Shown here: positions 17,817 through 64,000 of the stretch, piece after piece
Numbering within the stretch: position 1 is the stretch's first letter
Layout of the letters: each line of letters begins with the position of its first letter
Assembly (NCBI GenBank): GCA_025602915.1
Contig: JAHLJZ010000087.1
Span: 33,502 to 97,501, forward strand
DNA: 64,000 nucleotides
Direction of reading: 5' to 3'
Source of the DNA: Paraphysoderma sedebokerense
Lineage: Eukaryota > Blastocladiomycota > Physodermatomycetes > Physodermatales > Physodermataceae
The notes under the pieces: model-generated
What the model saw: the letters and a program-made list of their open reading frames with translations, nothing else
Databases searched by the model: none
Told to the model about the DNA's origin: nothing
Position numbers and translations under genes: made by a program

Positions 17817-19788
17817 ATGGCTATGAGGAAATCTAGAAAGTTGAGACAAGGCCAGACTGGCTTATTAGACATTAAGCAAGTAACAGATGATGATACCCCG
17901 CCAGTATCACCGACGAAATTTACTCCGAATGCCGAGTTCCGGACTATGTAAGTTTCACAGTCAATTTTACATTTTTTACCTTGTTCCTTACTCAACTCTC
18001 AATTACAAGGGAGTACGAATTAACACCCACCGGCCAGAAATTCATTAGTGGGGTGATATTATGCATTTTATTCCCACTCTTCATCTTTATGGTCATTGTA
18101 GCGTTAGCTATTCGTTTAGGCGAAAGGCTATTTGCTACCTCATTCCTCCGTGATCTCTACCATGATATCCACTCTTCCGTCACGCTAGTATCCGGACCGG
18201 TTTCTAATGGACCCAAACTACCTGCGCATCCGCCCTTCATTGAGCTGATCGAATTCGAAATTATCAAAACTCCTTGGTTCATTTTTAGGATTGTAGTTGG
18301 CTCGGTGTTATTGGTTCTTAAGGGTGGTCTCACATGTGCCAAAATCCGAATCTTATCTGATTCGGAATTTGGCGATTACATTAATAAATCTCTGTTCTCT
18401 CAGTATCTGGTAAAGGAAAAAAGAGACGGAGAAACTATATATACCTTAACTTTAGATGAGATCGTCGGATTAGAAACTTGGACTGGGACATTCCTTTCAG
18501 GTAATTCTTCCGAGTACCGAGTTTTCGTGATTGCCAATTGATTGACAAGGTTTGGCGTGTTTATCACTAGGTTCGGTCACTATTTTTAAAAGAACACGCG
18601 AAGGTAAATTGATTCCCGTATCGATTACTCTTGAGAATGGTTGTACATTCTATCCCCGCACGTCACCGGAATGGAAATGGGCACTCTCAAAAGTTTTCGT
18701 TATGCAAGGCCTTGTATACGTTACTATTGTTGGGCGACATCCTCACCTACATTTCCCTTATGATACTATTAAGTATGGATCCGTTCGTTAAGTTAATACT
18801 CAGGGGCCATTGAATAACTTTTGATATTATTTGTAGTGTTGTGACAAAACGGCACTTGCATCCCACGCATCCTCTCTACAAACTTCTGGCTCCTCACTTT
18901 CGATTTTCCATGGTTCTGAACATCACTGTATTGTCAGCCCCGAACAGCGTCCTTTTCAGCGATTACTGGAAACCATATGCAGCTCTTACGCTGGACAGTT
19001 CCGAAATATTCAACAAGCTTATGCATCGAGGGTGGGCGAAATGGTCATTTCCACGTTACCCGAATCTTTCCGAAGAATTTGTCTACGGTTACAGTTTATT
19101 GAATTACTACCAATGTATTCGTCGATTTATCGCCCAAATTTCACCTTACATTCCCCGAGACGACTTCGTGTTACAATGGGGCAACGAAATAGCCAAAAAT
19201 CTGCCATCATTTCCTTCTGGAGAAGATTTAGTGAAAGACGAAACTTTATTTATTGATACATTGGCCATGATCATTTTTACGGTCTCGGTTCACCATTGTG
19301 CTGATCATTATTGTTTCAGTCATATGGACCACCGAGTACTCCCGTTTAGACTAAGAGTTCCGCCACCATCAGATCATTCTACTGCTATTGGATTAAATGA
19401 GAATGAATTAATGACAAGACTAGATTATTTAAAGGTAATAATTCTTTTCATTGTCTTACGCTGGAAATTGCAGTCATTAACAGAATCATGACTTGATTGT
19501 TTATTAGCAAGTACAATTTCATGTGACAGCAGTAAGTTCTCGGCTTCAATGCGCGTTTTCTAATGCATGTGCTAACATTCGTTCTAGGCATTCCCTGGAA
19601 AATGTTACTTTCCGCTCATAGTTGACGACACAGCTCTAGCAAAAGTGGATTACAAGTTCAACCACCCTGAAATGACAAGAGCACAAGAATCGTTCAAATT
19701 GGACTTGATACTCACTAACAAATCGTTGGAAAAACAAGTTGGACCGGTAGTTCCCTTGGATGAGTTGGTCTGTAGTATAGAATTTTGA
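17817..19788 (+). CDS. divergent lipoxygenase-like protein with N-terminal membrane anchor
   Basis: Exons 17817-17947, 18010-18500, 18571-18772, 18837-19434, 19508-19531 and 19588-19788 stay in frame and give 548 residues. A transmembrane helix near residue 55-80 (FISGVILCILFPLFIFMVIV) anchors it. The C-terminal half carries lipoxygenase landmarks: WALSKVFVMQG, then VGRHPHLHF, then HPTHPLYKLLAPHFRF, the region SVHHCADHYCF matching the third and fourth metal ligands, and a C-terminal SI. Lipoxygenases are non-heme Fe or Mn dioxygenases of polyunsaturated fatty acids. By my alignment the first ligand position of the H-x4-H pair is Thr rather than His, and the usual terminal Ile is followed by Glu-Phe. 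It may therefore be altered or inactive, or my alignment may be shifted. Family membership is likely; activity is not established. Confidence 0.75.
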
Positions 19789-20765: not shown

Positions 20766-21764
20766 ATGAGAACGGAACAGCTTGTTACTGTACCTCCAAA
20801 TTCTGGGGACTTGTCGTGTCTTTTAGAAGCCAACAAAGAGTGGGCAGAGTCTATTAAACAGACATGTCCGGAAGTGTTTAGTGAAACTGTTAAAGGTCAG
20901 AATCCTAAAGTGTTGTGGATTGGGTGCGCGGATAGTAGAATTCCAGTTGCGCGGGTTACAGGCGTTGGTAAGCAAACTTGTTTCGTTTTTCTCCGATAGT
21001 CAAGATTCTGGTGAAGATTATAGAGGAGAAGCAAGTTTAATTGGAAATTTTAGAGAGCTTCCGATTGAAATGATTAGGACAGTTTATCTGACGTTGATCA
21101 AATCGTTGTGTTTGTTCTATTTTTATACTTGTTCCGCGTTCTCGACCGCGGACTGTCCGCCACTCATTCCAACATGGTTGAACAATCTCGGTTTAGGTCC
21201 CGGTGAACTCTTCGTCCATCGTAATGTAGCAAACTTATGCCTTCCAAACGATCTCAATCTTCTATCGACCTTGGCTTATGCCGTAGATTATTTAAAAGTT
21301 GAACACATCGTTGTAGCAGGTCACTACGAGTGCGGAGGTGTGGCTGCCGCGTTATCTTCCCAGTCATATGGGTTGATTGATCATTGGATCAAAGCAATTA
21401 AAGATGTGTATCATAGAAATAAGAAAAGAATACAAACATTGCAAAGTGTGAAGGAAAGGGCTAGGTTGTTGGTTGAGTTGAACGTCGCAAATTCGGTTTT
21501 TGAATTGAGTAGATCTGGAATTGTTCAAGGGGCATGGTAAGTTATGTTATGCCTTTTTTTTCAGTCATCAATTAAGAGACTGCGTCCAAATAGTCCAAAT
21601 ATGTGGGTGGCTCCAAGTATTAACGATACGGTTATAATAATAGGAAACGGGATCAGCCCTTAAAGTTGCACGGTTGGGTGTATCGTTTAGAAGACGGAAT
21701 ACTTGAAGATTTGGGCATCAATATCAACAAGATTGACGATGTACCATTGGAATACAGGGTGTGA
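20766..21764 (+). CDS. beta-carbonic anhydrase 2
   Basis: CO2/bicarbonate interconversion. Exons 20766-20967, 21197-21536 and 21644-21764 encode 220 residues, the usual size for a compact fungal beta enzyme. The zinc-site motifs CADSR and HYECGG are intact, as is the C-terminal GWVYRLEDGILEDL. The start is the ATG of MRTEQLVTVPPNSGDL. It is a close paralogue of the enzyme at 2037-3979: intron positions (after TGVG and within the Trp codon of GAW) are the same, but the long N-terminal extension is absent. No targeting signal is visible, so a cytosolic location is inferred. Confidence 0.95.
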
Positions 21765-37609: not shown

Positions 37610-39232
37610 ATGTCGCTCTTGGATACTGATCTCCTTCGTGATCGTTTGAGCGAAGCTTTCAATCTTATGAATATCGGCACCACTCCTACCCTTGGTCTTA
37701 CCGCACCACCAACCAAGGCGTTGAACCTCGGGAAAAGAGGTATCAATCTAAACATTGGAGAAGTAAGTAGTTCTGCATTACAATCCCGCCTGTTAGTGTT
37801 GAGGCAAGTTGAGTAGCGCGACATTGCTTCATCTTAATTGTCAATCATTCGTTCATATCTTCATTTTTAGTTATCAATTTATTAACAATATTGAATACAA
37901 AAATAGACGGATGACTCCTACAAAATTGTTGCTGAAATGCCGGGTATCCCCAAACAAAATATTAACATTTCCCTTGAAGAAGGCATCCTTACTATCCGGG
38001 GTGAGAAGCGACGTCCGGAAGATTTTCCGGAGAAAGACTCGGACATTTTGCTTGAAGAATCCACTTACGGGAAATTGTCAAGGACAATAAGATTGCCCAA
38101 CGGTATATTTTGATTTTTATATTTTGCGTTCAAATTGGATTACACGGATCCCTTGTACGCAAAACTAAAAAAGCTATCATTTGTAGACATCGACCCTGAA
38201 AACTGTATTGCCAAATTCGAAAATGGTTTGCTGTGTCTCAATATAGCAAAAAGCAGCGGCACTCACGCCCGCACTATCGAAATTGGGGAAGGCTCGTTTG
38301 GCACAGCTCAAATCGGTGAAACTCAATCCAAAGAGCAACTTGAAAAAGGAGAGCAACTTGAAGAAGGAGAGCAACTCGAGAAAGGGCGACAAGGTGAGAC
38401 AGGAGAAAAACTTGCTGGGTTGCAAGATACCGAAAAATCTACAGAATTTAAAGGAGCAGGACAACCCTTCAGGGGAGAAGGGGCGGATCAAACTTCTGGG
38501 TTAACAGGACAGGAGCAGTCCACTGGATTTGGAGGATCTGAACAATCTTCAGGTTATACAGGTGTCGAGCAACCATCCGGACTAACTGACAGTGATCAAT
38601 CTACGGGACTTCAACAAGGATCCGAGCAATCGTCTGGATGGACGGGTAACCAGCAATCATCTGGCTTAACGGGTTCGGATCAATCCGCGGAGTTCAAAAG
38701 ACCTGAGCAATCGTCTGGATGGACGGGTAACCAGCAATCATCTGGCTTAACGGGTTCGGATCAATCCACGGAGTTCAAAAGACCTGAGCAATCGTCTGGA
38801 TGGACGGGTAGCCAGCAATCATCTGGCTTAACGGGTTCGGATCAATCCACTGAGTTCAAAAAACCCGAACAATCCTCTGGCTGGACAGGTAGCGATCAGT
38901 CAACTGGATTAGCAGGTAGTGCGCAATCTACTGGGTGGGGTGGTGCCGGACAATTAAAGGGGCCAACAGACACTGAACAATTCTCAGATATCAGAAGACC
39001 CGAACAACCTACTAGTTGGGGAAGTTTCGAACAGTCTTCTGAGTTAACAGGCTTAGGCATGGGCCGTGGAACGGAAGGAGAAACTCTGGGTGGGAAAGAA
39101 ACTCCGTCAGGAGAAAATGTGCAACTAGGAGGGCAATATGGTCAAGACACAACCCAAGGAACTGCAGGACAATTTGGTCAGACCCCCGGTGCTGGATTTG
39201 GTGATAACAAGGAACGGCGAACTTCCTTTTAA
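37610..39232 (+). CDS. small heat-shock protein with ~320-aa Gln/Ser/Gly repeat tail
   Basis: Alpha-crystallin-domain chaperone. Exons 37610-37762, 37907-38102 and 38187-39232 give 464 residues, two to three times the normal size of the family. The N-terminus MSLLDTDLLRDRLSEAF leads to the domain: DDSYKIVAEMPGIPKQNINI, LTIRGEKRRPEDF, YGKLSRTIRLPND and CIAKFENGLLCLNIAK, followed by RTIEIG, an IxI-type motif. After residue about 145 the protein changes: Glu-Gln-Leu repeats (EQLEKGEQLEEGEQLEKG), then dozens of EQSSG/TGSDQST units, and a Gly-rich end. The tail has the composition of a prion-like disordered domain, with regular charged residues. Tail and domain are in one exon, so the fusion is not a splicing guess. 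Confidence 0.9.
38624..38866 (+). repeat. three tandem 81-bp repeats inside the sHSP tail
   Basis: GAGCAATCGTCTGGATGG recurs at 38624, 38705 and 38786, with a diverged fourth start at 38867. Period 81 bp, 27 codons (EQSSGWTGNQQSSGLTGSDQ plus STEFKRP). Copies are nearly identical in DNA, so they arose or were homogenised recently; length polymorphism is likely. Confidence 0.9.
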
Positions 39233-41112: not shown

Positions 41113-42231
41113 GTGATAACATAGGGTGTCGCGAACCAAAGGGACAGTATCATAATGCAATAAATATCTCGTTGGTTGAATTCATCAAAGATGGCCAGTT
41201 GTCTCGACTACTCACAACAGTTTAGTTATTTGTTCCACCTCTTGTCTGTGCAGATTTACTGTCTAGCCTTCAAACTTTCTATTGTATTCTTTATTCCCCT
41301 TCAATTACACAGCTCTCTGTCTGTTTAATAGATTGATTGCTTTGCTGATAGGGATAGACAAATAATGGGACGACCGTACTCCGCCTCGAAACTCCTGTAC
41401 GGGGTGATGCCGTTTCGGTTTGAATGCGTCTTACAACTCGTCATTTTTCCATGAGACGATAAATGTTCTTGCTGTTTCCTATTTTTCTTTCCTTCTTTCT
41501 AGCGACTCAGATCATTCAGTGGTTATTCAATATGATCGCACTTCCCAATCATTTCTTCTTGCAATCTGTCTGTTCAATGGATTGATTGCGCTTCTGATAG
41601 GGATAGACCAACATCTAGACGACCGTACTCCGTCTCGAAACTCCTGTACGGGGTGATGCCGTTTCGGTTTGAATGCGTCTTACATTTACTTGTTGCTAAA
41701 TTTTTATTGTGACAAATCGAACCTATACCCATTTTTTTCGTTTAATATGTCCCTTATCGATCTGGCAATTCGATCTAGTGATAGTGTTACGTGATAGAGC
41801 TGAAATTGCTTGATAATAAGGGTACACCAACATTTTCATTAGACCCGAGAGACGTCTAGTTCTTCGTCTTGGAACAATAAATAAGTAATGAAATAATTCA
41901 TGACGGTTAAAATGCATCTTACATTTGACTGTTGTCAGTGTCTTGCTTCTTTCTTTTGATAGTATCCGTTATCTGACTGTAATAAGATGAAATCGAATAC
42001 ATATTGTTGTTTGGTATAATAGCAATGGAACAAGAAACTCACAAGATACAGAAAAGCCAACTCTGATTTCGATTTCAACAAAATATACAAATATTTGATA
42101 TTTACGTTTTCATGGCCACTTTGTCTCCACTTGAATAATACAATCAATGACGAAACAACTACATTGAATTTGCAATCGTCCGTTCCGCTTATGACACCAT
42201 CTTGTCTAAATTAACGACAAAGGTGATTGAA
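41113..42231. other. intergenic region with dispersed direct repeats
   Basis: About 1.1 kb between the convergent RPL15 and GID9 genes. Apart from RPL15 3' UTR, the main content is the repeat pair at 41311-41686. No coding sequence supported. Confidence 0.5.
41311..41686 (+). repeat. 249-bp-spaced direct repeats
   Basis: A segment of about 120 bp at about 41311-41436 recurs at about 41562-41685 with offset 249 bp. The core from GATAGGGATAGAC to TGAATGCGTCTTACA is highly similar, including identical CTCGAAACTCCTGTACGGGG. A degenerate third relative lies around 41815-41935 (ATGCATCTTACATTTG). Within the core CCGTAC and GTACGG can pair as a short stem. Confidence 0.8.
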
Positions 42232-47363: not shown

Positions 47364-48576
47364 GCGAAAGACTTTTGTCGGATTGAATTTCGCTGTTTAG
47401 TGTTTACTTAATCTTCATTGTTTGACGTGTGGAAGATATTATTTTAATGTACTTTTAGCAATGCAATGGCTTTTTATTTTTCTTGTTTCTCTTTTTGCAC
47501 GATCGATGTTACTTCTGTGGATTTTTCATTGTCCTTTTGTTTTTATCTTGTTAATGCTAATATACAGGTAGACCTTTTTTCTGCGTTCTACCAGGAATGA
47601 TGGATTCATGATTATGATCATGGGACATTGAGGGCGAATGCCATGAGAGGAAAGGTGGTGGAATTTGCAAATATGCTGTATGGGTTCTGGAGGGCCGAGT
47701 CGTCTTTGATCAGTTATGATGGAATCTGATTGGTAAAGTGCCAGTCTTTTCGGATGAGAAGGTGATATGGTGGATCGATATATATGAAAGTCACTTAAAG
47801 TGTTATGAAGGATGGAGAGATATATGCGCGTTATAATAAGTAATTGTTCCCAATCATGAATAGGAAAGACAAGACCAAAAAAAGTCTAAATAATAAAATG
47901 AAAAATTTTATGGGTTGAATAATAATTGTTTGTATTTCGTTGTTCTCATTCTTCATCTACTTTTATTTTGTAGCATTTTGGGAAATGTATTCCATCGCAA
48001 TCTCGAGCAATTGATATTCGAAATTAAAATTTGCAAGCTAGCTACAAATGTCACTTACACTGTGTTGTTACTGTAATGTATAATTATCAACGATTATTAC
48101 AAACTATATATCATAAAAAAATCTCGGGTTTGGAAAGGCTACGTGTATGTTAAACAGGAGTGACGAAACATCGATCTCGTACTAGTCCATGATGACGTCG
48201 GCGACACCAATGGAGCAGGAGCTTGGAATTCTCGGATCATTCTATATGTCATTAAGAATATTTCCGACTCGAATTGACTCCGCATATTGGATTAGCATAA
48301 AGGTTTTTGAATTCATAAATGGCGATGCACAAATAAGAAAGTTAGTCGGATACCACATCGTCGAGTCAATTCTGCTTCGGTAGAGTACACATCTGAATGA
48401 CCGTGAAATGTATTTCTTTCCGTTCATGGAGAAGTTTGGATTAAATAACCATACGATTGCTTATTCTTTCCTTATTCGGAGGATACGGGAAGGCCTAGCC
48501 ATTGCGATACGTGAAGGCTACGTTATGGGACCGTCGCTCTTTGCGTCGCCTTGATACTGGACGGCGTCGCCTTGAT
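47364..48576. other. intergenic
   Basis: About 1.2 kb after PAB1. T-rich 3' UTR, then nothing recognisable. It probably contains the missing 5' exon(s), including a start codon, of the Cys-rich gene, but I could not identify them. Confidence 0.4.
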
Positions 48577-49058
48577 TTCGGAACTTCAAAATACAGATTT
48601 GTCTGTTTACTGTCTTGAGCGCTCCGCAACGTCCAAGAGAAGGGTATGGTCGCGGCGTTGGTACACCGATGGACCAATGCGCCCAGAATGAAGAACAAAA
48701 CGGCGCCTTCTGCTATCCCAAATGCGAGGACGGATTTTACGGCGCAGGACCAGTATGCTGGGAAGCCTGTGCTTCCGATGAGAGAGACGATGGGCTTACC
48801 TGTTTCCGCTCAATTATCAGTTTTCGTTGGAAAAAATCCCATGATCGTGGTGCCGGCCATCCTCCCAATTCTTGCCCTGCTGGAAAAGAAGCCAATCAAA
48901 ATTTATGTTATGAACCCTGTAAACAGGGCTATAGAGGTGATTTTCTGATTTCCTTTTCCGACAATTTTAGATGCACAAGTTGGACCAGTTGATTAATGTT
49001 ATCTATATTTGATTTTATAGGTGTTGGTCCAATGTGCCATTACGTCGGCAATAATTAA
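48577..49058 (+). CDS. Cys-rich module protein, 5' end unresolved
   Basis: An exon to 48936 and a last exon 49021-49058 encode two Cys-rich modules: YGRGVGTPMDQCAQNEEQNG, CYPKCEDGFYGAGPVCWEAC, then DRGAGHPPNSCPAGKEANQN, CYEPCKQGYRG and VGPMCHYVGNN. Such YGRGxG / GAxCYPxCxxGFYGVGPVCW modules occur in extracellular proteins of several eukaryotic groups; their function is unknown. The reading frame is open from 48577 but has no suitable ATG, so an upstream exon, perhaps with a signal peptide, is missing from the model. The breakpoint of the 7.6-kb repeat (48833) falls inside this gene. Confidence 0.6.
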
Positions 49059-49900
49059 AATTTGACTCTTTGCAACCAGTTTACCGTGTGATAAAATACT
49101 CTTTAAGATCAAAATCGTGTAGTTTAGAAATATCGAAAAATTTGTAAATCAATATTATACATATATGTAGTTTTAGTTTATTTCGGTAGATTTTTAATAT
49201 CTTATTTGTATATTACATGAATTGGGAAACAATGTCACGTTGTCCGACATAGTAATTATTGTTCAGTCAATGACAAATATAATCTGTCTGACTTCAGTTC
49301 AGTCGCCTGCAAATGAACCCTTTTGTCATTACACATATTAAAGTTTTCACTATGGCATACAGCTGATAGCCTCCCCCTCTTACGATCGCCACAAAGTTCA
49401 ATAAATACGCTGCGTTTTGATTTTGTTCTGCCAGGCATGCTGCTATAAAACAATCCCCTCGATTGCACCATCCTTCATGCGTATATACATAATTTATCGC
49501 AGTTACAGTGATATTTCTGGCTTAATTCCTCATGTATAGGCCCACCTATCGAGAGTTTACTGGCCTGTTTGTCCAATCGACTAGGTGTATCAACTGCTGT
49601 TTTCGACCAAATTTTGTCGAGTAGGATGGATAAACATTGTCAAACAACCATGATATATTGCTACATTACGACAGTTATAGATCCAAGGTACTTTGAAGCC
49701 CAAGACATCAACAACAGGATATTGGCAGCCTACTCCGCCTCATTTAATTTCCAATGACTTGGTTACAACTGCCCTACAGATTCATTCCAGTTCACAATAT
49801 GTTACATAAAATCAAAACAATCTCCGGCATCCCACTCACAATGTTCAAAGTAGCTTCCTTCTTGAATCTCATCAGCAATTCACTTCACCTCATCCTGCAC
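49059..49900. other. intergenic
   Basis: About 840 bp between the Cys-rich gene and the RBM22 stop. Several short frames on both strands but no recognisable product or splice chain. Repeated at 56643-57484. Confidence 0.45.
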
Positions 49901-51605
49901 CTACAAATCCCGTTTTGTGCTTCCCAACATTGTAGGGTCCATTGAAGGATATGATATCGAACCCGCACCAGGAGGAGGAGGAGGCATCGCCGAAGTTGAA
50001 GCACTATCAGCATAATACTTATGTTGGGGTCCAGTGTGTTCTGTAGACAAGTAAAAAGTCAGATATAATTGATAGTAATATGAAGATAAGATGATTACCA
50101 GGTGGAGGCTGCGGTCGTTTAGCTGCTATTTCTGATGAGGGTCCTTGGGGTCTTGGTCTATTGACGGAGAATGTTTAATGTTGTATTCACCTTAATTCAA
50201 ATAAAACTTTAATTTTCTTACTTTCCCCATGCAACTCTCAATGGTCTCTGCCTAATCATTAAGTTACCCTGCAATTTCGCCATTGCAGCTTCTGCACCCG
50301 CCCTTGTGGCAAAATTCACAAAAGCACATTTTGATCTGTACACCATTACTATGGATTTGATTTCACCGAATGCGTAAAAATATCCACTATTTAAGCAATA
50401 AGGATTCAATACGTCAGATTCATTATTACGAAAACGAAGTTAATGGAAGAGACTTCAAACCGTAAATCCTGCTCTGTTACATCTTGACTAACATTGGACA
50501 CAAATAAGGAAGCAACTGTCGGGTCGTCGGGAGGGGTAAGGCCATTATATTTTTCTGTTTTACCTAGAATCTTCAGAGCAACCGGATCGTGGGTGCCATA
50601 ATATCGATCTTTAAAATTTTGATGCGACAGTTCACCCTCGTCCGGCATTTCATGCCTGAAAAATTGATGATACAGTTTTAATCAGTCAAGTCGAGTAGAC
50701 TTAAATATAACTAGTAGTATACAGACCTATAAGGACATTCAGTACCACGCTTACATTCACCCTTGACATAAAACGAACATATATGTGGTCGATTTCGTTT
50801 ATAGTAGGGATCTGTCCGTGTCAGTTTCTTGAGAGTTTCCTTCGCGGCTGAATCAACTTTTCCTGCTCCTCCGGCGTATGTCATCATTTGATCACCAGTC
50901 TCTTCCATCTATAAGCATCGGGGAGTATGAATTTAGTAGTGATACGGGCTAAATTATCAAAGCGCCAACCAACCTTCATCTCTGCATTCCGAATGAACCA
51001 TTCCCGATTTACATCTGATTTCGGCATCGCCTCACTGTTTTGCACAACTGTATCTCGAACCTGTGTTGGAAGTCCTGAATACAACATATCATATCAAACA
51101 ATAAGTTTGTCGAGTTCAGGCTATGCGTAATGTCATAATAAACAAAAATCGAACCATATTCCAAATCCAGTAAACAAGTCTGACAAACATTTTTCAGCTT
51201 TGCACAGGTTTGACAAATTTCAGTTTTCTTAAATCTCATTCCAGCCCCTGGAAGCCATCGGAAAACTGTAAAAGGTCTAGCGCAAACCTAAATATGATAA
51301 GGTCAACGGAAGTGATTCCGACATTAACCGAGCAACGAAAAGAACAAACTTTGCATTCTCGAGACATATTTTGCTTGGTCTACATCGGAAAGAGATTAAT
51401 CATCATAAACTTTAGAGGCAGAATAGCCTAAATATACTGCATACCATTCTGACGTAGGGATTATCACCCAGGCATGTTTCGCAGACGATCGGAAATTCCT
51501 ACAAGATCACAAAATTAGAATCATGTCAGGAAAAGAAGTCATTACAGGAAATCGCGGAAAAGAATTACAACTAACCGAATCATCAACTCCTTTTTTTGCG
51601 TTCAT
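49901..51605 (-). CDS. spliceosome protein RBM22/Slt11(Ecm2)/Cwc2-type, copy 1
   Basis: Component of the activated spliceosome that contacts U6 snRNA and the intron. The start [20 protein letters not shown] leads into Cys-rich zinc-binding repeats ([43 protein letters not shown]). Then come a CCCH zinc finger ([20 protein letters not shown]), the RBM22 signature [19 protein letters not shown], and an RRM ([18 protein letters not shown]…[20 protein letters not shown]…[13 protein letters not shown]). The tail is Pro-rich and ends STKRDL at 49901. About nine exons. The combination fits RBM22/Slt11 closely; the fused RRM and CCCH finger also covers what yeast divides between Ecm2 and Cwc2. Confidence 0.93.
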
Positions 51606-51682
51606 GATTCTTATTTATATATGTTATTATCGGGATTGTTGAATGTCCCTACAAAAGGCCCCTACGAAAGGCGAAGGTAGAG

Positions 51683-51699
51683 CACGTGAGTGTCACGTG
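51683..51699. promoter_or_regulatory. double CACGTG, RBM22 promoter
   Basis: Two CACGTG cores 11 bp apart start-to-start (51683 and 51694), the second as TCACGTGA, 78-94 bp upstream of the RBM22 start. One helical turn apart suggests paired factor binding. Repeated at 59267-59283. Confidence 0.5.
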
Positions 51700-51831
51700 A
51701 TTCAATTTAACTTCAGGTTGAATCCTTCACTGAACAGTACAATATAATTGCAACCAAAGTGATTGTTATATTACTATGCACGGTAAGAGCGCAAAATCGA
51801 CATTTAGTTTTATTTAAATTCTTTAATCCGG

Positions 51832-52707
51832 TCACTCTTCATCAGAGAGTAAATCTTCTTCTGCATCACTGTCATCCTCATTCATTTCTTGATAATACGT
51901 CAAAGCTTTCGGAAATAAATCGTTTGCTATGAGATTCAAGTAATCCAACTCTTTTTCTTCAAACATATTGAACACGCTCTCGGATTTCTCTTCATCCTAC
52001 AATGGGATAAATCAACGGTCAGAACAATCGGCTACGACGAGGGTCACAAATTCAGACAATAAAACCAAGTCATACCGATAGTTTTCCTTTCCACTTTATT
52101 GGGGAGCATTCGATAGTTTCCATGTCTCCGTCTTTAAAAGTAACATTAGCGCTGATTTTTTTATTTTCGAACGTATCGTTCTTTCCGAAGTGCATCCCAA
52201 TTGTAAAGTTTGCCGCGCATGATGGATCCCTCTCAACAGTCAGGTCCTCAAGGGCTTCGATTGCACTCAAATCATTTTCGGAAACGAGGCCACCGAATGC
52301 CGGGTGGGCTGATATTATAATCGACCAGAAGTTAGGAATCTGAAACGATGTTAATAAATGAATTGAAATCAATAGTTGAATTGTATCCTGCCTTTTTGAG
52401 CAACTCTCGTCGTTGATTGTACAGCGGAGCTTTTTTGGCTTCATATTTTGACAATAATTGTAAAAATTCTTTATTGTAATCCAACTCAATCTCGTCGAGA
52501 CCATCTATCACAAAAGATAAGATATTAATCCATTTGCAGGATTCAAGACATTGGTCTTCACGGTATGAAATGAAACTCACCAACCACATCGCTTAACTTT
52601 TGGAAGGTTTCATCCAACTGTTGGTCATCATCATGCTGATCGGTCTTTGCTTTCTTTGAGACTGTAGCTTCGGCTTCGGCCTTTCGTTTTTGAGTCGGTT
52701 GTGGCAT
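51832..52707 (-). CDS. SET/NAP1-family histone chaperone, copy 1
   Basis: Acidic histone chaperone. The start MPQPTQKRKAEAEATVSKKA is nuclear-localisation-like. An alpha-helical dimerisation segment follows (DGLDEIELDYNKEFLQLLSK with APLYNQRRELLKK), then the NAP fold IPNFWSIIISAHPAFGGLVS, EDLTVERDP, NFTIGMHFGKNDTFENKKIS and ECSPIKWK, and an acidic tail MNEDDSDAEEDLLSDEE. IPNFW…HP and the length of about 240 residues point to the SET/Vps75 branch rather than long NAP1. It divergently shares a 220-bp promoter with NUBP1. Confidence 0.92.
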
Positions 52708-52802
52708 AATTGATGTGGTCTGGACGTATTGAGGGAGGAATGATTCGCTAAACGATTGACATAGAACAACCTTAGGATTCGGTAATCCGTGTTTACAAAG
52801 AG

Positions 52803-52808
52803 CACGTG
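52803..52808. promoter_or_regulatory. CACGTG in bidirectional SET/NUBP1 promoter
   Basis: Lies between the start codons at 52707 (-) and 52927 (+). Repeated at 60387-60392. Confidence 0.45.
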
Positions 52809-52926
52809 TTTATCGTTCCACTACAACCTCCATTAGTCAGGGTCTTAAAGGTGAGAAGCGCATTCGAAAAATTGTTGAGCAAGATTTCTCACTTTAATAC
52901 TTAGAAAGATACTTCAGTTCGGCTCC

Positions 52927-54245
52927 ATGGTGGAAAGCAAACCTTCAAATGCTCCGGAGCATTGCCCCGGTACAGACAACGAGTTGGCGGGGAAAGCTGC
53001 TGCTTGTGCTGGATGTCCCAACCAGAACATATGCGCTACAACCCCTAAAGGACCTGACCCTGGTAAATTCAGAATATTGTCAATTTCGGCGACGTTTAAG
53101 TATTGATTGCCCATCTCATTTAGCAATTCCGCTGATTAACGAGAGGATGGAGAACATCCGACACAAGATTTTGATCCTATCTGGAAAAGGCGGAGTGGGG
53201 AAAAGCACATTTACTTCTCAGCTGGCATTCGCATTGTCAAATGATGATGAGGTGCAGGTACATAATTGATCATCTCTTTGAATAGCTTTCTTTATACCTT
53301 GACTTGCCTAGTTTAACTCCTTTAATTGACGCTCTGGACAGGTCGGGCTCGTGGACGTAGATATTTGCGGGCCATCAATTCCTAAAATTATGGGTTTGGA
53401 AGGAGAACAGATTCATCAGAGTAGTAGTGGGTGGTCGCCTGTTTATTTAGAAGATAATCTCGCCGTTATGTCGATTGGATTTATGTTGCAGAATCAAGAC
53501 GATGCTATCATATGGAGAGGACCGAAGAAAAATGGTTTGATCACTCATCTTGCTTATTAGTTGTTGATACTAAACTAATCATTAGTTCATTAATGTATTG
53601 CCTCTTTTCGTCATAAAGGCCTGATTAAGCAGTTCCTAAAAGATGTCGAGTGGGGCCCACTCGATTTCCTCTTAATCGACACACCTCCTGGAACTTCTGA
53701 CGAGCATCTGTCAATTGTTCAGTTCCTCAAGGAAGCAGGAATAGACGGGGCAATTGTGATAACGACACCTCAGGAGGTGGCCCTCCAAGATGTGAGAAAG
53801 GAGATAAACTTTTGTAGGAAAGTCGGTATACCCATCTTGGGGGTCGTGGAGAACATGCGAGGATTTGTATGCCCTGGATGTAAGGTAAGGAAGCCAAGCG
53901 GCCATTCCTAGTTTTTAGATTTTACCGATTCATTTCTAATTCGCTGTTCTTATGCAGAACGAATCCCAGATCTTCCTTCCATCCACCGGAGGAGCTCAGA
54001 AAATGTGCGAGGAACTGAATCTCCGTTTGCTGGGCTCGATACCACTGGATCCACGAATTGCAAAGTCATGCGACCACGGTGTTTCCTTTATGGATGAATT
54101 CCCGGATTCACCCGCGACAGAAGCTCTAGAAAAAATTGTTGAGGGTAAGTTTAATCGTTTACACTCCATTGAATGCTAGCATTTGAATATAATGTGACGA
54201 TACGACCTCTATTTCTTCTCAGGAATCAAATCCACATTGAATTAG
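52927..54245 (+). CDS. NBP35: cytosolic Fe-S assembly P-loop ATPase NUBP1/Nbp35, copy 1
   Basis: Scaffold ATPase that builds [4Fe-4S] clusters for cytosolic and nuclear proteins, with Cfd1. The N-terminal cluster motif is present: EHC, 13 residues, CAGC, then CPNQNIC (C-x13-C-x2-C-x5-C). That feature separates Nbp35 from Cfd1. Next are [20 protein letters not shown] (deviant Walker A), [52 protein letters not shown] and the C-terminal bridging-cluster pair [10 protein letters not shown] (CPxC). Exons begin at 52927, 53124 and 53342; later boundaries fall at KKN|G, GCK|NES and VE|G. The stop at 54243 follows IKSTLN. All catalytic residues are intact. Confidence 0.95.
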
Positions 54246-54568
54246 CACCGTTTGAACTGCGACTCAATAAACCTCTTTCTTGAATGGCCTGGTGACTGAA
54301 ACAAATTGACGGTCAAGGAAAGCCAAGTACTCGTCACGATAATATCAATGTAGATACGATTGAAAGCCAATATTCTTTATCTTTTCGTATAGTTATCTGT
54401 ATATGGTACACGTAAAGGGAGAAATGATTTTGGATTCATCAATTGCCTTGGGTTGGAAATATATTTTAGGAGTTAGGTACACTATGTTCAGGTTCTAATC
54501 ATTGACATTGATACAATAAAGTACTTCTCACATGGCAATTAATGCGGTAGTATATTTAACAAGTTGCA
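54246..54568. other. convergent 3' region
   Basis: About 320 bp between the stops of NUBP1 and the dioxygenase. Nothing seen. Repeated at 61830-62152. Confidence 0.5.
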
Positions 54569-55550
54569 TCACTCTTCCTTGACTCCAACATCTCCGTCTT
54601 CACTTTTTACAGTTTTGGTCTCCGTATCTAAAGCATTTGCTGGTACCATTTTCCCATTCTGATATTTGAACACATCCCCATCCCCCACGTTATAGCGATA
54701 ATAGTTATTCGTTCCAGCAACATTAATTGCCTTTCTCAAAGTGATGTTGACCCTCGGAAATGCTTTCGATCGCTTCGGAATTGAATGATCCCAGTTACTT
54801 TGTGTCGGACCTTGCATTATGATCAAGTCACCATTTTGAAGCGTAAATGATTTTTTACGACCGTGATTTGATTTTTGGCGGAGAAAAAAGTCTCGGGTAC
54901 CTCCTACGGTATTAGGGCCACGGTATGAACAAGAATGAATTAACTTATACTTAGAAAGTGCGAACAGAGGAAATAAATGATATACCTAATGAAAGAGAGG
55001 CGATAGTAGGGTTTGGTCCTAAAAACGATTCATCATCGCTATGATACGCTATACTGTTACTCCCATCTTCATAAAAATTGATCAACACAAAATTAAATTT
55101 ATCCCCTGTCACTTCCTCCACTTTTTCTTTATACTTTCTCAATACATCGGGAATCGGTACGGGTTCTATCTTGTAAACTGAAGGCGGACTGTTGGTTTCG
55201 TCGATTCCAAAGACAGTTGTATACCGCGGTGTAACAATTTGGCGACCTCGAGAGCGATAGGTTACCCTGTGCCATGGTAGTTCTGCTAGACAGTAATTGT
55301 AGAACGCGGTTGCGGTTGCAGGAGAAAGGAAGGAATTGTAGTAAACTAGGTCGAGGTCTTGTTCCCGAATGATGGATTTGTTTTGTAGTTGAATGCCATT
55401 GTCAAAATCTATAGACTCATTTTTTGTCGTTGGGGACGGAAATGATGAAGGGATATCCAGTTTTGTATCCTCAGTCTTTGTACGTTTTGATGGGAGCCGG
55501 GCGGTAGAATCATATTCTCCAGACAAACTTCGTTTCTGTATAGATGTCAT
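54569..55550 (-). CDS. ALKBH2/3-type 2-oxoglutarate/Fe(II) dioxygenase, copy 1
   Basis: AlkB-family enzyme that removes alkyl groups from DNA or RNA bases. Two exons joined at SLSLG|GTRDFF. A Lys/Arg- and Ser-rich N-terminus (TSIQKRSLSGEYDSTARLPS…KRTKTED) could be nuclear targeting. The catalytic core has LVYYNSFLSPATATAFYNYC, PWHRVTYRSRGRQIVTPRYT, NFVLINFYEDGSNSIAYHSD with the iron-binding HxD, SLGGTRDFFLRQ, GDLIIMQGPTQSNWDHSIPK with the distal His, and RVNITLRK with the 2-oxoglutarate Arg. The QNxxH-type arrangement and lack of extra domains fit ALKBH2/ALKBH3. Length is about 290 residues. Confidence 0.92.
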
Positions 55551-56416
55551 GAATATGCGGATACTGCTTCAATGGACTGCGAATGCAAATTCAGAGGTGT
55601 CTCGCCAAACCATATCAGATCGTAACGATATTAAAGTACACGCATTCATTCTGCCCTTGTGATGTGATGTGATGTCATATCTGGTCCGACGAGGCTACGA
55701 TCGCCATTTCGTGAGCGAATATTTCATTCGTACCGCTTTGTCTAAATATTCTCATTTTTGCAAAATAATAGGAACTTACAACAATGTATTCTCCAATGGG
55801 ACCGGAAAGTTATGTGAACCCTGCCCACAAGGTTACTTGCCATATGTAATTGTTTGTTATTCGGACTGCTTGTTAATGACTTATTTTCATGTCTTGCTAT
55901 AGGGGCGACATGCAAGTAACTGAGATTCAGTTTGATGTCATTTCTATGCCATTCATATAAATACCGCTACTAACATCGAAGCAAAAGAACGAACGGATCA
56001 GTTTCCCCGTCCCTATATATGACTGGTGGAGAACTGAAAAGTAACAACACGATTACCTTCTTGCCGTGTATCCCTGTGTGTTATCCTCTCCTTCTATTTG
56101 TGCTATTTTGGACACAACTGACGTTGAGCTGTTGCTTCAAGCCCCAAGCTTGCCCTGGTGCAAGTAGAATCCGTAATACGGAAACTGGTTTGAATTTGTA
56201 TTGGTGTTCTTGAGGATAATGGTCTTTCCATAATTCTCAATGGCTTTAATTTCTCGCGATTCCATTGAGTCTATGCAGTCGAAACGGACAGTTCGTTCAA
56301 GCCCAATTATTTTTCAATATGTTAAAATGCTTTTAATATACTGTACGAATTTCTTAAGGGAGTGCATGAAAAGGAATGCAAATTGCGACATGTTGCGCGA
56401 CAATCGGACGGCAATG
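55551..56416. other. region upstream of the dioxygenase, possible tiny genes
   Basis: About 870 bp to the end of copy 1. Two weak candidates: a two-exon 22-codon frame at 55784-55923, and a 64-codon frame at 56019-56213 with a hydrophobic stretch (YPLLLFVLFWTQLTLSC) followed by Cys residues, perhaps a small secreted protein. Neither has family support. Repeated at 63135-64000. Confidence 0.35.
55784..55923 (+). CDS. possible micropeptide gene (22 aa), copy 1
   Basis: Exons 55784-55831 and 55903-55923 join in phase to MYSPMGPESYVNPAHK plus GRHASN and a TGA. The splice donor GTTACT is weak and the acceptor CTATAG is good. The overlapping frame in the same exon also reads plausibly, so this is a tentative call. 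Confidence 0.2.
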
Positions 56417-56642
56417 AAAATCCCATGATCGTGGTGCCGGCCATCCTCCCAATTCTTGCCCTGCTGGAAAAGAAGCCAATCAAAATTTATGTTATGAACC
56501 CTGTAAACAGGGCTATAGAGGTGATTTTCTGATTTCCTTTTCCGACAATTTTAGATGCACAAGTTGGACCAGTTGATTAATGTTATCTATATTTGATTTT
56601 ATAGGTGTTGGTCCAATGTGCCATTACGTCGGCAATAATTAA
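56417..56642 (+). pseudogene. 3' fragment of the Cys-rich module gene
   Basis: Copy 2 begins inside the gene at DRGAGHPPNSC and keeps the second module, the last intron and the final exon (stop at 56640), but lacks the first module and start. Preceding sequence is the unrelated end of copy 1. If the duplication is real, this is a dead gene fragment. Confidence 0.7.
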
Positions 56643-57484
56643 AATTTGACTCTTTGCAACCAGTTTACCGTGTGATAAAATACTCTTTAAGATCAAAATC
56701 GTGTAGTTTAGAAATATCGAAAAATTTGTAAATCAATATTATACATATATGTAGTTTTAGTTTATTTCGGTAGATTTTTAATATCTTATTTGTATATTAC
56801 ATGAATTGGGAAACAATGTCACGTTGTCCGACATAGTAATTATTGTTCAGTCAATGACAAATATAATCTGTCTGACTTCAGTTCAGTCGCCTGCAAATGA
56901 ACCCTTTTGTCATTACACATATTAAAGTTTTCACTATGGCATACAGCTGATAGCCTCCCCCTCTTACGATCGCCACAAAGTTCAATAAATACGCTGCGTT
57001 TTGATTTTGTTCTGCCAGGCATGCTGCTATAAAACAATCCCCTCGATTGCACCATCCTTCATGCGTATATACATAATTTATCGCAGTTACAGTGATATTT
57101 CTGGCTTAATTCCTCATGTATAGGCCCACCTATCGAGAGTTTACTGGCCTGTTTGTCCAATCGACTAGGTGTATCAACTGCTGTTTTCGACCAAATTTTG
57201 TCGAGTAGGATGGATAAACATTGTCAAACAACCATGATATATTGCTACATTACGACAGTTATAGATCCAAGGTACTTTGAAGCCCAAGACATCAACAACA
57301 GGATATTGGCAGCCTACTCCGCCTCATTTAATTTCCAATGACTTGGTTACAACTGCCCTACAGATTCATTCCAGTTCACAATATGTTACATAAAATCAAA
57401 ACAATCTCCGGCATCCCACTCACAATGTTCAAAGTAGCTTCCTTCTTGAATCTCATCAGCAATTCACTTCACCTCATCCTGCAC
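56643..57484. other. intergenic (copy 2 of 49059-49900)
   Basis: Same content as 49059-49900; no gene supported. Confidence 0.45.
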
Positions 57485-59189
57485 CTACAAATCCCGTTTT
57501 GTGCTTCCCAACATTGTAGGGTCCATTGAAGGATATGATATCGAACCCGCACCAGGAGGAGGAGGAGGCATCGCCGAAGTTGAAGCACTATCAGCATAAT
57601 ACTTATGTTGGGGTCCAGTGTGTTCTGTAGACAAGTAAAAAGTCAGATATAATTGATAGTAATATGAAGATAAGATGATTACCAGGTGGAGGCTGCGGTC
57701 GTTTAGCTGCTATTTCTGATGAGGGTCCTTGGGGTCTTGGTCTATTGACGGAGAATGTTTAATGTTGTATTCACCTTAATTCAAATAAAACTTTAATTTT
57801 CTTACTTTCCCCATGCAACTCTCAATGGTCTCTGCCTAATCATTAAGTTACCCTGCAATTTCGCCATTGCAGCTTCTGCACCCGCCCTTGTGGCAAAATT
57901 CACAAAAGCACATTTTGATCTGTACACCATTACTATGGATTTGATTTCACCGAATGCGTAAAAATATCCACTATTTAAGCAATAAGGATTCAATACGTCA
58001 GATTCATTATTACGAAAACGAAGTTAATGGAAGAGACTTCAAACCGTAAATCCTGCTCTGTTACATCTTGACTAACATTGGACACAAATAAGGAAGCAAC
58101 TGTCGGGTCGTCGGGAGGGGTAAGGCCATTATATTTTTCTGTTTTACCTAGAATCTTCAGAGCAACCGGATCGTGGGTGCCATAATATCGATCTTTAAAA
58201 TTTTGATGCGACAGTTCACCCTCGTCCGGCATTTCATGCCTGAAAAATTGATGATACAGTTTTAATCAGTCAAGTCGAGTAGACTTAAATATAACTAGTA
58301 GTATACAGACCTATAAGGACATTCAGTACCACGCTTACATTCACCCTTGACATAAAACGAACATATATGTGGTCGATTTCGTTTATAGTAGGGATCTGTC
58401 CGTGTCAGTTTCTTGAGAGTTTCCTTCGCGGCTGAATCAACTTTTCCTGCTCCTCCGGCGTATGTCATCATTTGATCACCAGTCTCTTCCATCTATAAGC
58501 ATCGGGGAGTATGAATTTAGTAGTGATACGGGCTAAATTATCAAAGCGCCAACCAACCTTCATCTCTGCATTCCGAATGAACCATTCCCGATTTACATCT
58601 GATTTCGGCATCGCCTCACTGTTTTGCACAACTGTATCTCGAACCTGTGTTGGAAGTCCTGAATACAACATATCATATCAAACAATAAGTTTGTCGAGTT
58701 CAGGCTATGCGTAATGTCATAATAAACAAAAATCGAACCATATTCCAAATCCAGTAAACAAGTCTGACAAACATTTTTCAGCTTTGCACAGGTTTGACAA
58801 ATTTCAGTTTTCTTAAATCTCATTCCAGCCCCTGGAAGCCATCGGAAAACTGTAAAAGGTCTAGCGCAAACCTAAATATGATAAGGTCAACGGAAGTGAT
58901 TCCGACATTAACCGAGCAACGAAAAGAACAAACTTTGCATTCTCGAGACATATTTTGCTTGGTCTACATCGGAAAGAGATTAATCATCATAAACTTTAGA
59001 GGCAGAATAGCCTAAATATACTGCATACCATTCTGACGTAGGGATTATCACCCAGGCATGTTTCGCAGACGATCGGAAATTCCTACAAGATCACAAAATT
59101 AGAATCATGTCAGGAAAAGAAGTCATTACAGGAAATCGCGGAAAAGAATTACAACTAACCGAATCATCAACTCCTTTTTTTGCGTTCAT
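57485..59189 (-). CDS. RBM22/Slt11-type spliceosome protein, copy 2
   Basis: Exact second copy of the gene at 49901-51605, with the same exons, zinc-binding Cys repeats, CCCH finger and RRM, and the same double CACGTG promoter (59267-59283). Intact coding sequence. Real only if the 7.6-kb duplication is real. Confidence 0.8.
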
Positions 59190-59415
59190 GATTCTTATTT
59201 ATATATGTTATTATCGGGATTGTTGAATGTCCCTACAAAAGGCCCCTACGAAAGGCGAAGGTAGAGCACGTGAGTGTCACGTGATTCAATTTAACTTCAG
59301 GTTGAATCCTTCACTGAACAGTACAATATAATTGCAACCAAAGTGATTGTTATATTACTATGCACGGTAAGAGCGCAAAATCGACATTTAGTTTTATTTA
59401 AATTCTTTAATCCGG

Positions 59416-60291
59416 TCACTCTTCATCAGAGAGTAAATCTTCTTCTGCATCACTGTCATCCTCATTCATTTCTTGATAATACGTCAAAGCTTTCGGAAAT
59501 AAATCGTTTGCTATGAGATTCAAGTAATCCAACTCTTTTTCTTCAAACATATTGAACACGCTCTCGGATTTCTCTTCATCCTACAATGGGATAAATCAAC
59601 GGTCAGAACAATCGGCTACGACGAGGGTCACAAATTCAGACAATAAAACCAAGTCATACCGATAGTTTTCCTTTCCACTTTATTGGGGAGCATTCGATAG
59701 TTTCCATGTCTCCGTCTTTAAAAGTAACATTAGCGCTGATTTTTTTATTTTCGAACGTATCGTTCTTTCCGAAGTGCATCCCAATTGTAAAGTTTGCCGC
59801 GCATGATGGATCCCTCTCAACAGTCAGGTCCTCAAGGGCTTCGATTGCACTCAAATCATTTTCGGAAACGAGGCCACCGAATGCCGGGTGGGCTGATATT
59901 ATAATCGACCAGAAGTTAGGAATCTGAAACGATGTTAATAAATGAATTGAAATCAATAGTTGAATTGTATCCTGCCTTTTTGAGCAACTCTCGTCGTTGA
60001 TTGTACAGCGGAGCTTTTTTGGCTTCATATTTTGACAATAATTGTAAAAATTCTTTATTGTAATCCAACTCAATCTCGTCGAGACCATCTATCACAAAAG
60101 ATAAGATATTAATCCATTTGCAGGATTCAAGACATTGGTCTTCACGGTATGAAATGAAACTCACCAACCACATCGCTTAACTTTTGGAAGGTTTCATCCA
60201 ACTGTTGGTCATCATCATGCTGATCGGTCTTTGCTTTCTTTGAGACTGTAGCTTCGGCTTCGGCCTTTCGTTTTTGAGTCGGTTGTGGCAT
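59416..60291 (-). CDS. SET/NAP1-family histone chaperone, copy 2
   Basis: Exact second copy of 51832-52707, intact from MPQPTQKRK to the acidic tail. No difference from copy 1 was found in the frames compared. Confidence 0.8.
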
Positions 60292-60510
60292 AATTGATGT
60301 GGTCTGGACGTATTGAGGGAGGAATGATTCGCTAAACGATTGACATAGAACAACCTTAGGATTCGGTAATCCGTGTTTACAAAGAGCACGTGTTTATCGT
60401 TCCACTACAACCTCCATTAGTCAGGGTCTTAAAGGTGAGAAGCGCATTCGAAAAATTGTTGAGCAAGATTTCTCACTTTAATACTTAGAAAGATACTTCA
60501 GTTCGGCTCC

Positions 60511-61829
60511 ATGGTGGAAAGCAAACCTTCAAATGCTCCGGAGCATTGCCCCGGTACAGACAACGAGTTGGCGGGGAAAGCTGCTGCTTGTGCTGGATGT
60601 CCCAACCAGAACATATGCGCTACAACCCCTAAAGGACCTGACCCTGGTAAATTCAGAATATTGTCAATTTCGGCGACGTTTAAGTATTGATTGCCCATCT
60701 CATTTAGCAATTCCGCTGATTAACGAGAGGATGGAGAACATCCGACACAAGATTTTGATCCTATCTGGAAAAGGCGGAGTGGGGAAAAGCACATTTACTT
60801 CTCAGCTGGCATTCGCATTGTCAAATGATGATGAGGTGCAGGTACATAATTGATCATCTCTTTGAATAGCTTTCTTTATACCTTGACTTGCCTAGTTTAA
60901 CTCCTTTAATTGACGCTCTGGACAGGTCGGGCTCGTGGACGTAGATATTTGCGGGCCATCAATTCCTAAAATTATGGGTTTGGAAGGAGAACAGATTCAT
61001 CAGAGTAGTAGTGGGTGGTCGCCTGTTTATTTAGAAGATAATCTCGCCGTTATGTCGATTGGATTTATGTTGCAGAATCAAGACGATGCTATCATATGGA
61101 GAGGACCGAAGAAAAATGGTTTGATCACTCATCTTGCTTATTAGTTGTTGATACTAAACTAATCATTAGTTCATTAATGTATTGCCTCTTTTCGTCATAA
61201 AGGCCTGATTAAGCAGTTCCTAAAAGATGTCGAGTGGGGCCCACTCGATTTCCTCTTAATCGACACACCTCCTGGAACTTCTGACGAGCATCTGTCAATT
61301 GTTCAGTTCCTCAAGGAAGCAGGAATAGACGGGGCAATTGTGATAACGACACCTCAGGAGGTGGCCCTCCAAGATGTGAGAAAGGAGATAAACTTTTGTA
61401 GGAAAGTCGGTATACCCATCTTGGGGGTCGTGGAGAACATGCGAGGATTTGTATGCCCTGGATGTAAGGTAAGGAAGCCAAGCGGCCATTCCTAGTTTTT
61501 AGATTTTACCGATTCATTTCTAATTCGCTGTTCTTATGCAGAACGAATCCCAGATCTTCCTTCCATCCACCGGAGGAGCTCAGAAAATGTGCGAGGAACT
61601 GAATCTCCGTTTGCTGGGCTCGATACCACTGGATCCACGAATTGCAAAGTCATGCGACCACGGTGTTTCCTTTATGGATGAATTCCCGGATTCACCCGCG
61701 ACAGAAGCTCTAGAAAAAATTGTTGAGGGTAAGTTTAATCGTTTACACTCCATTGAATGCTAGCATTTGAATATAATGTGACGATACGACCTCTATTTCT
61801 TCTCAGGAATCAAATCCACATTGAATTAG
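60511..61829 (+). CDS. NBP35: NUBP1/Nbp35 Fe-S assembly ATPase, copy 2
   Basis: Exact second copy of 52927-54245 including introns, the N-terminal four-Cys cluster motif, deviant Walker A GKGGVGKS and CPxC. Shares the divergent CACGTG promoter (60387) with SET copy 2. Confidence 0.8.
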
Positions 61830-62152
61830 CACCGTTTGAACTGCGACTCAATAAACCTCTTTCTTGAATGGCCTGGTGACTGAAACAAATTGACGGTCAA
61901 GGAAAGCCAAGTACTCGTCACGATAATATCAATGTAGATACGATTGAAAGCCAATATTCTTTATCTTTTCGTATAGTTATCTGTATATGGTACACGTAAA
62001 GGGAGAAATGATTTTGGATTCATCAATTGCCTTGGGTTGGAAATATATTTTAGGAGTTAGGTACACTATGTTCAGGTTCTAATCATTGACATTGATACAA
62101 TAAAGTACTTCTCACATGGCAATTAATGCGGTAGTATATTTAACAAGTTGCA

Positions 62153-63134
62153 TCACTCTTCCTTGACTCCAACATCTCCGTCTTCACTTTTTACAGTTTT
62201 GGTCTCCGTATCTAAAGCATTTGCTGGTACCATTTTCCCATTCTGATATTTGAACACATCCCCATCCCCCACGTTATAGCGATAATAGTTATTCGTTCCA
62301 GCAACATTAATTGCCTTTCTCAAAGTGATGTTGACCCTCGGAAATGCTTTCGATCGCTTCGGAATTGAATGATCCCAGTTACTTTGTGTCGGACCTTGCA
62401 TTATGATCAAGTCACCATTTTGAAGCGTAAATGATTTTTTACGACCGTGATTTGATTTTTGGCGGAGAAAAAAGTCTCGGGTACCTCCTACGGTATTAGG
62501 GCCACGGTATGAACAAGAATGAATTAACTTATACTTAGAAAGTGCGAACAGAGGAAATAAATGATATACCTAATGAAAGAGAGGCGATAGTAGGGTTTGG
62601 TCCTAAAAACGATTCATCATCGCTATGATACGCTATACTGTTACTCCCATCTTCATAAAAATTGATCAACACAAAATTAAATTTATCCCCTGTCACTTCC
62701 TCCACTTTTTCTTTATACTTTCTCAATACATCGGGAATCGGTACGGGTTCTATCTTGTAAACTGAAGGCGGACTGTTGGTTTCGTCGATTCCAAAGACAG
62801 TTGTATACCGCGGTGTAACAATTTGGCGACCTCGAGAGCGATAGGTTACCCTGTGCCATGGTAGTTCTGCTAGACAGTAATTGTAGAACGCGGTTGCGGT
62901 TGCAGGAGAAAGGAAGGAATTGTAGTAAACTAGGTCGAGGTCTTGTTCCCGAATGATGGATTTGTTTTGTAGTTGAATGCCATTGTCAAAATCTATAGAC
63001 TCATTTTTTGTCGTTGGGGACGGAAATGATGAAGGGATATCCAGTTTTGTATCCTCAGTCTTTGTACGTTTTGATGGGAGCCGGGCGGTAGAATCATATT
63101 CTCCAGACAAACTTCGTTTCTGTATAGATGTCAT
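62153..63134 (-). CDS. ALKBH2/3-type dioxygenase, copy 2
   Basis: Exact second copy of 54569-55550 with all iron and 2-oxoglutarate ligands intact. Confidence 0.8.
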
Positions 63135-64000
63135 GAATATGCGGATACTGCTTCAATGGACTGCGAATGCAAATTCAGAGGTGTCTCGCCAAACCATATC
63201 AGATCGTAACGATATTAAAGTACACGCATTCATTCTGCCCTTGTGATGTGATGTGATGTCATATCTGGTCCGACGAGGCTACGATCGCCATTTCGTGAGC
63301 GAATATTTCATTCGTACCGCTTTGTCTAAATATTCTCATTTTTGCAAAATAATAGGAACTTACAACAATGTATTCTCCAATGGGACCGGAAAGTTATGTG
63401 AACCCTGCCCACAAGGTTACTTGCCATATGTAATTGTTTGTTATTCGGACTGCTTGTTAATGACTTATTTTCATGTCTTGCTATAGGGGCGACATGCAAG
63501 TAACTGAGATTCAGTTTGATGTCATTTCTATGCCATTCATATAAATACCGCTACTAACATCGAAGCAAAAGAACGAACGGATCAGTTTCCCCGTCCCTAT
63601 ATATGACTGGTGGAGAACTGAAAAGTAACAACACGATTACCTTCTTGCCGTGTATCCCTGTGTGTTATCCTCTCCTTCTATTTGTGCTATTTTGGACACA
63701 ACTGACGTTGAGCTGTTGCTTCAAGCCCCAAGCTTGCCCTGGTGCAAGTAGAATCCGTAATACGGAAACTGGTTTGAATTTGTATTGGTGTTCTTGAGGA
63801 TAATGGTCTTTCCATAATTCTCAATGGCTTTAATTTCTCGCGATTCCATTGAGTCTATGCAGTCGAAACGGACAGTTCGTTCAAGCCCAATTATTTTTCA
63901 ATATGTTAAAATGCTTTTAATATACTGTACGAATTTCTTAAGGGAGTGCATGAAAAGGAATGCAAATTGCGACATGTTGCGCGACAATCGGACGGCAATG
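63135..64000. other. copy 2 of 55551-56416
   Basis: Same sequence as the end of copy 1, including the possible micropeptide (63368-63507). The window ends here. Confidence 0.4.

What the first reader, a model, noticed from the sequence alone, without database searches (positions are those of the whole stretch)
48833..64000. Perfect 7,584-bp tandem duplication whose second copy ends on the last base of the window
48833-56416 equals 56417-64000 by constant offset, with four intact genes duplicated including introns. 2 x 7,584 fills the window to exactly 64,000. A natural breakpoint landing there by chance is about 1 in 7,600. If a 56,416-bp contig had been filled up with its own last 7,584 bases, this is exactly what would be seen. 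A contig-end assembly loop is the second option; a very recent real duplication is the third. Gene counts depend on the answer.
Basis: partly seen in the sequence, partly recalled or inferred. Interest (0 to 1): 0.75.

Follow-up and report, generated by a model that had tools for sequence, protein, structure and literature searches.

The report
Contig tail probably written twice
A 7.6-kb stretch with four ordinary cellular genes appears twice, letter for letter, and the second copy stops on the last base supplied; this most likely reflects a sequence end duplicated by data handling or assembly rather than biology.

Summary
The unit holds four spliced eukaryotic genes: RBM22/Cwf5-like, SET/NAP-like, Nbp35/Cfd1-type ATPase and ALKBH2/3-like. 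Its left border cuts a fifth, Cys-rich gene whose frame is open through 48833, so copy 1's left flank is native and 56416/56417 is the only new junction. It has no N and chance-level similarity.

No source record, reads or relatives were reached, so the coincidence with the window end decides. It is certain if a sequence ending at 56416 had its tail copied, likely if a contig ended at an assembly-graph branch after two passes, and about 1 in 7584 for a real duplication cut at random. I judge artefact about 0.8 (data handling 0.5, contig-end assembly 0.3) and real tandem duplication 0.18. Zero differences alone does not prove extreme recency. Count the genes of 56417-64000 once until the source length or reads are checked.

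The parts
48833..56416 (.). Copy 1 of the 7584-bp unit, in its native left context
   Evidence: Exact match to 56417-64000; the frame of the Cys-rich gene is open across its left border
56417..64000 (.). Copy 2, identical to copy 1, ends on the last base of the window; probably not independent sequence
   Evidence: 0 of 7584 mismatches
56416..56417 (.). The only novel junction: unit end joined to unit start, no N
   Evidence: 0 bp left extension; 2 of 10, 4 of 20, 9 of 40 and 15 of 60 bases identical in the two left flanks; between the 300 bases before 56417 and the 350 bases 48533-48882 one shared 9-mer and no shared 10-mer
48669..49055 (+). Cys-rich gene (ends approximate) of no Pfam family, crossing the left border; only its 3' part recurs, at 56417-56639
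   Evidence: Frame 48576-48989 open through 48833; no Pfam hit at E 0.01; two related Cys-rich segments in that frame, E=6.6e-9.
49901..51510 (-). RBM22/Cwf5-like splicing factor gene, spliced (approximate; first short exon not located); repeated at +7584
   Evidence: STL11_N, zf-CCCH_RBM22 and RRM_1 in three frames; hand-joined 352-aa model matches PDB RBM22 chain 9r8v_P, E=7.7e-149
51832..52707 (-). SET/NAP-family histone chaperone-like gene, spliced; repeated at +7584
   Evidence: PF00956 NAP E=2.2e-12 and NAP1-related protein 5day_A E=7.1e-12, both for the frame 52073-52504 only; ends from the model
52927..54245 (+). Nbp35/Cfd1-type cytosolic Fe-S scaffold ATPase gene, six exons; repeated at +7584
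   Evidence: PF10609 in three of three frames searched; 312-aa model; Cfd1 6g2g_A E=5e-76
54569..55550 (-). ALKBH2/3-like dioxygenase gene, two exons; repeated at +7584
   Evidence: PF13532 in both frames searched; 298- or 299-aa model (two possible acceptors); ALKBH2 3rzm_A E=1.3e-26

Best explanation
The real sequence most likely ends at base 56416. The last 7584 bases of that sequence were written a second time to reach 64000, in preparing the record or the window. Copy 2 then has no biological meaning: its left border sits wherever 2 x 56416 - 64000 happens to fall (inside an exon of an unrelated gene), the copies are identical because they are the same letters, and the second copy ends on the window's last base by construction. 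Shown: identity, borders, absence of a gap and of homology on the left side of the junction, open frame across the left border. Inferred: that the source ends at 56416 and that something filled it up.
For: Exactly 2.000 units end on base 64000, with 0 of 7584 differences and 0 bp left extension. The left border cuts an open coding frame. Base composition before the right border is unremarkable (G+C 0.35-0.44 in 300-base blocks from 54001). No homology at the junction (15 of 60 bases identical, against a per-base chance of 0.258). No tRNA and no Rfam family in the window and no short tandem array at the borders. The terminal 15- to 127-mers of the unit occur only in the two copies. The other duplicated gene pair in the window, two beta-carbonic anhydrase genes, shows what an old duplication looks like here: 76.5% identity over 115 residues, 69-81% over three DNA pieces.
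Against: No direct evidence of filling: source length, record and reads are unavailable. Filling with the sequence's own tail is an unusual way to pad. An exact or near-exact ending is also predicted by a contig that stops at an assembly-graph branch.
Confidence: 0.5

Rival explanations
1. Contig-end assembly artefact: the contig in the database really holds both copies and ends at base 64000, because an assembler passed twice through a terminal loop or appended an overlapping end. A chimeric or misjoined read gives the unit-end to unit-start link.
For: In a de Bruijn graph of left flank + unit + unit + random right flank, the unit came out as one unitig of 7585, 7584 and 7585 bases for k = 55, 77 and 127 (3 of 3 trials), so a path that stops at the branch ends on, or within a base or few of, the unit's last base; over 100,000 random flanks the extra shared bases were 0 in 71%. 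[quoted passage not shown]
Against: Needs the window end to coincide with a contig end. Without a right flank (a dead-end loop) the one trial made gave unitigs of 7660 and 8908 bases, none equal to the unit, so exactness is predicted only where the unit end is a branch. PMC9516828 (passages): regions between false duplicates are most often an assembly gap, sometimes an unsupported read-depth gap; there is no N here and read depth is unknown.
Confidence: 0.3
2. A genuine tandem duplication made by end joining, or by a template switch without homology, recent enough to have no differences; the window or contig happens to end at the unit border, or the contig ends there because assembly stopped at the branch.
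For: Continuous sequence without N and a plain head-to-tail structure with one novel junction and an open ancestral frame across the left border. Natural tandem duplications with no or at most 3 bp junction homology exist: CUP1 arrays of yeast (PMC4232551, passages). 0 of 7584 allows divergence up to 3.9e-4.
Against: If the cut is random, an exact two-unit ending is about 1 in 7584. Non-homologous yeast segmental duplications studied in PMC2518615 (passages) used 5-10 bp of microhomology or low-complexity sequence; none is visible on the side that can be tested.
Confidence: 0.18

Closest known systems
Homotype false duplication at contig boundaries (Vertebrate Genomes Project, PMC8081667; PMC9516828)
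   Same: Same-sequence duplication next to the original, inflating gene counts; possibly at a contig end
   Different: No gap at the junction; read depth, the main test used there, could not be checked; exact coincidence with the end of the supplied sequence
Assembly-graph cycle of undetermined multiplicity (PMC9104695)
   Same: A unit followed by itself, number of turns not fixed by the graph
   Different: Described there for circular elements in metagenomes; no graph is available here
Non-homologous tandem duplication such as yeast CUP1 arrays (PMC4232551)
   Same: Head-to-tail copies, border inside a gene, little or no junction homology
   Different: No reads and no strain comparison here, and the array ends exactly with the supplied sequence

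Membership tests
Tail-fill / data-handling duplication | Last segment equals the preceding segment exactly and ends on the last base | tested here: met
Tail-fill / data-handling duplication | Source sequence ends at 56416 | not testable with these tools
   No genome held; 0 exact matches in viral contigs and genome contigs
Contig-end assembly false duplication | Located at a contig boundary | not testable with these tools
   Contig length unknown
Contig-end assembly false duplication | Reduced read depth over the copies, or a junction without reads | not testable with these tools
   No reads available
Contig-end assembly false duplication | Assembly gap (N) between the copies (most often, not always: PMC9516828) | tested here: not met
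   No N in the window; the feature is common, not required
Natural tandem duplication | Junction supported by spanning reads, PCR or a second assembly | not testable with these tools
   None available
Natural tandem duplication | Homology or microhomology at the junction (common, not required) | tested here: inconclusive
   0 bp on the left; the right side lies beyond the window

The most novel reading that the evidence does not exclude
A real, very young tandem duplication (or a chromosomal copy of an excised circle) of a four-gene block in an unidentified intron-bearing eukaryote, made without homology and caught before any base had changed.
Probability: 0.17. Interest if true: 0.25.

Novelty: not a real feature. 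Interest (0 to 1): 0.07.

Why it matters
If copy 2 is an artefact, four genes (RBM22-like, SET/NAP-like, Nbp35/Cfd1-like, ALKBH2/3-like) would be counted twice, and a truncated Cys-rich gene and one chimeric junction would be invented. Other windows of the same scan should be checked for a suffix equal to the segment before it; several such cases would settle the cause at once.

Tried and rejected
Recombination between flanking paralogues: a weak resemblance of 55810-55860 to the Cys-rich gene (E = 1.0) suggested paralogues at both ends of the unit. It is not significant and the junction does not fall in it, so it was dropped.

Mobile element or RNA-gene involvement: no tRNA, no Rfam family at gathering score, no inverted repeat pair at seed 16 and 30 bases or more (the diverged inverted carbonic anhydrase pair found is below that setting and far from the unit). 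The 9 of 10 frames with Pfam hits are ordinary cellular families; the other one, the Cys-rich frame, has none.

Block-size explanation: 48832, 56416, 7584 and 64000 are all multiples of 32. This is a 1-in-32 coincidence noticed after the fact and not used.

Finding the source: exact 34-base junction pattern in viral contigs (0 hits), exact 33-base pattern from the Nbp35-like gene in genome contigs (0 hits), PABP C-terminal protein in viral contigs (5 pattern matches, 0 confirmed). These collections are of viruses and of bacteria and archaea, so the misses say little. The organism was not identified; that it may be an early-diverging fungus is only a recollection-based guess. The NCBIfam scan and the PDB search with coproporphyrinogen oxidase named left-hand genes but did not place the organism.

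Literature: searches listed the five papers cited, of which I read passages only. Searches listed papers that I did not open, and one search found none.

Full report
OBSERVATION. The claim is exact. 48833-56416 and 56417-64000 are 7584 bases each with 0 mismatches; the base before each copy differs (A against G), so the period starts precisely at 48833; there is no N in the window and G+C is 41%. A repeat search (seed 16, at least 30 bases) finds the same pair at spacing 7584, two other direct families and no inverted pair. A more sensitive self-comparison of 1-56416 adds only one diverged pair, two carbonic anhydrase genes.

GENE CONTENT. Frames with Pfam matches define four genes inside the unit (10 frames given, 9 with hits): an RBM22/Cwf5-like splicing factor on the minus strand (STL11_N, zf-CCCH_RBM22, RRM_1), a SET/NAP-like protein (minus), an Nbp35/Cfd1-type P-loop ATPase (plus) and an AlkB-like dioxygenase (minus). 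PDB-sequence searches agree: RBM22 chain 9r8v_P at 7.7e-149 with a hand-joined model, Cfd1 6g2g_A at 5e-76, ALKBH2 3rzm_A at 1.3e-26, NAP1-related 5day_A at 7.1e-12 (one frame only was searched). The Nbp35-like model runs from ATG to stop in six exons and the AlkB-like one in two. My automatic models of the RBM22- and NAP-like genes skip conserved pieces, and the first exon of the former, about 18 residues, was not located.

BORDERS. A Cys-rich frame with no Pfam family is open from 48576 to 48989, through position 48833; the left flank is therefore the native context. Its 3' splicing is uncertain: two models differ. Copy 2 carries only the 3' part of that gene. The single new junction is 56416/56417. 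The sequence before it shares 2 of 10, 4 of 20, 9 of 40 and 15 of 60 bases with the sequence before copy 1, which is chance level; between 300 bases before 56417 and 350 bases around the left border there is one shared 9-mer and no 10-mer. The window has no tRNA or Rfam hit, and none of the four tandem-repeat rows lies at the borders (periods to 500).

WHAT THE IDENTITY SAYS. 0 of 7584 bounds the divergence below 3.9e-4 (95%). For comparison, the carbonic anhydrase pair at 2088-2921 (minus) and 20768-21713 (plus) is 76.5% identical in 115 residues and 77%, 69% and 81% in three DNA pieces of 222, 206 and 79 bases. Identity alone does not separate an artefact from a young duplication.

WHAT THE END SAYS. 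Measured to the window's last base, the array is exactly two units long. If a real array were cut at random, this has a probability near 1 in 7584. It is certain if a sequence of 56416 bases was filled with its own tail. It is also likely if a contig ended at an assembly-graph branch: in a de Bruijn graph of flank-unit-unit-random flank, the unit formed one unitig of 7585, 7584 and 7585 bases at k = 55, 77 and 127, the extra base being chance similarity with the flank, and random flanks share 0 bases in 71% of 100,000 draws. Against this, a dead-end loop without a right flank gave no 7584-base unitig in the one trial made (7660 and 8908 bases). The assembly reading therefore needs a branch at the unit end, and it needs the window end to be the contig end. 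It can surround a false or a real loop.

LITERATURE (passages only). [quoted passage not shown] Regions between false duplicates were most often a gap, sometimes an unsupported read-depth gap (PMC9516828); here there is no N. [quoted passage not shown] Real tandem duplications with 0-3 bp junction homology are known from CUP1 in yeast (PMC4232551), while the non-homologous yeast segmental duplications of PMC2518615 used 5-10 bp of microhomology or low-complexity sequence.

VERDICT. Observation confirmed; most likely not a real feature. My probabilities are judgements: tail fill or data handling 0.5, contig-end assembly loop 0.3, real tandem duplication 0.18. The source could not be reached: no genome is held, and exact patterns had 0 hits in viral contigs and genome contigs, which are not collections of eukaryotes. 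The genes of 56417-64000 should be counted once until the source length or reads are checked.

Noticed in passing
2088-2921 (-) and 20768-21713 (+): Two beta-carbonic anhydrase genes in opposite orientation, 76.5% identical over 115 residues: an old dispersed duplication.
   Followed up: partly
38438-38936: Tandem repeat of 81 bp (27-bp sub-period) inside a 372-aa open frame; that frame has no Pfam family at E 0.01.
   Followed up: partly
41316-41435 and 41565-41684: A 120-bp direct repeat, 90% identical, spaced 249 bp.
   Followed up: no
48576-49055: Cys-rich protein gene with two related segments in its frame and no Pfam match.
   Followed up: partly
18814-19488: Open frame with a weak match to lipoxygenase just below Pfam's cut-off (22.9 against 23.6 bits).
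   Followed up: no
48832, 56416, 7584, 64000: The unit length and border offsets are all multiples of 32; a 1-in-32 coincidence, or a trace of block-wise data handling.
   Followed up: no
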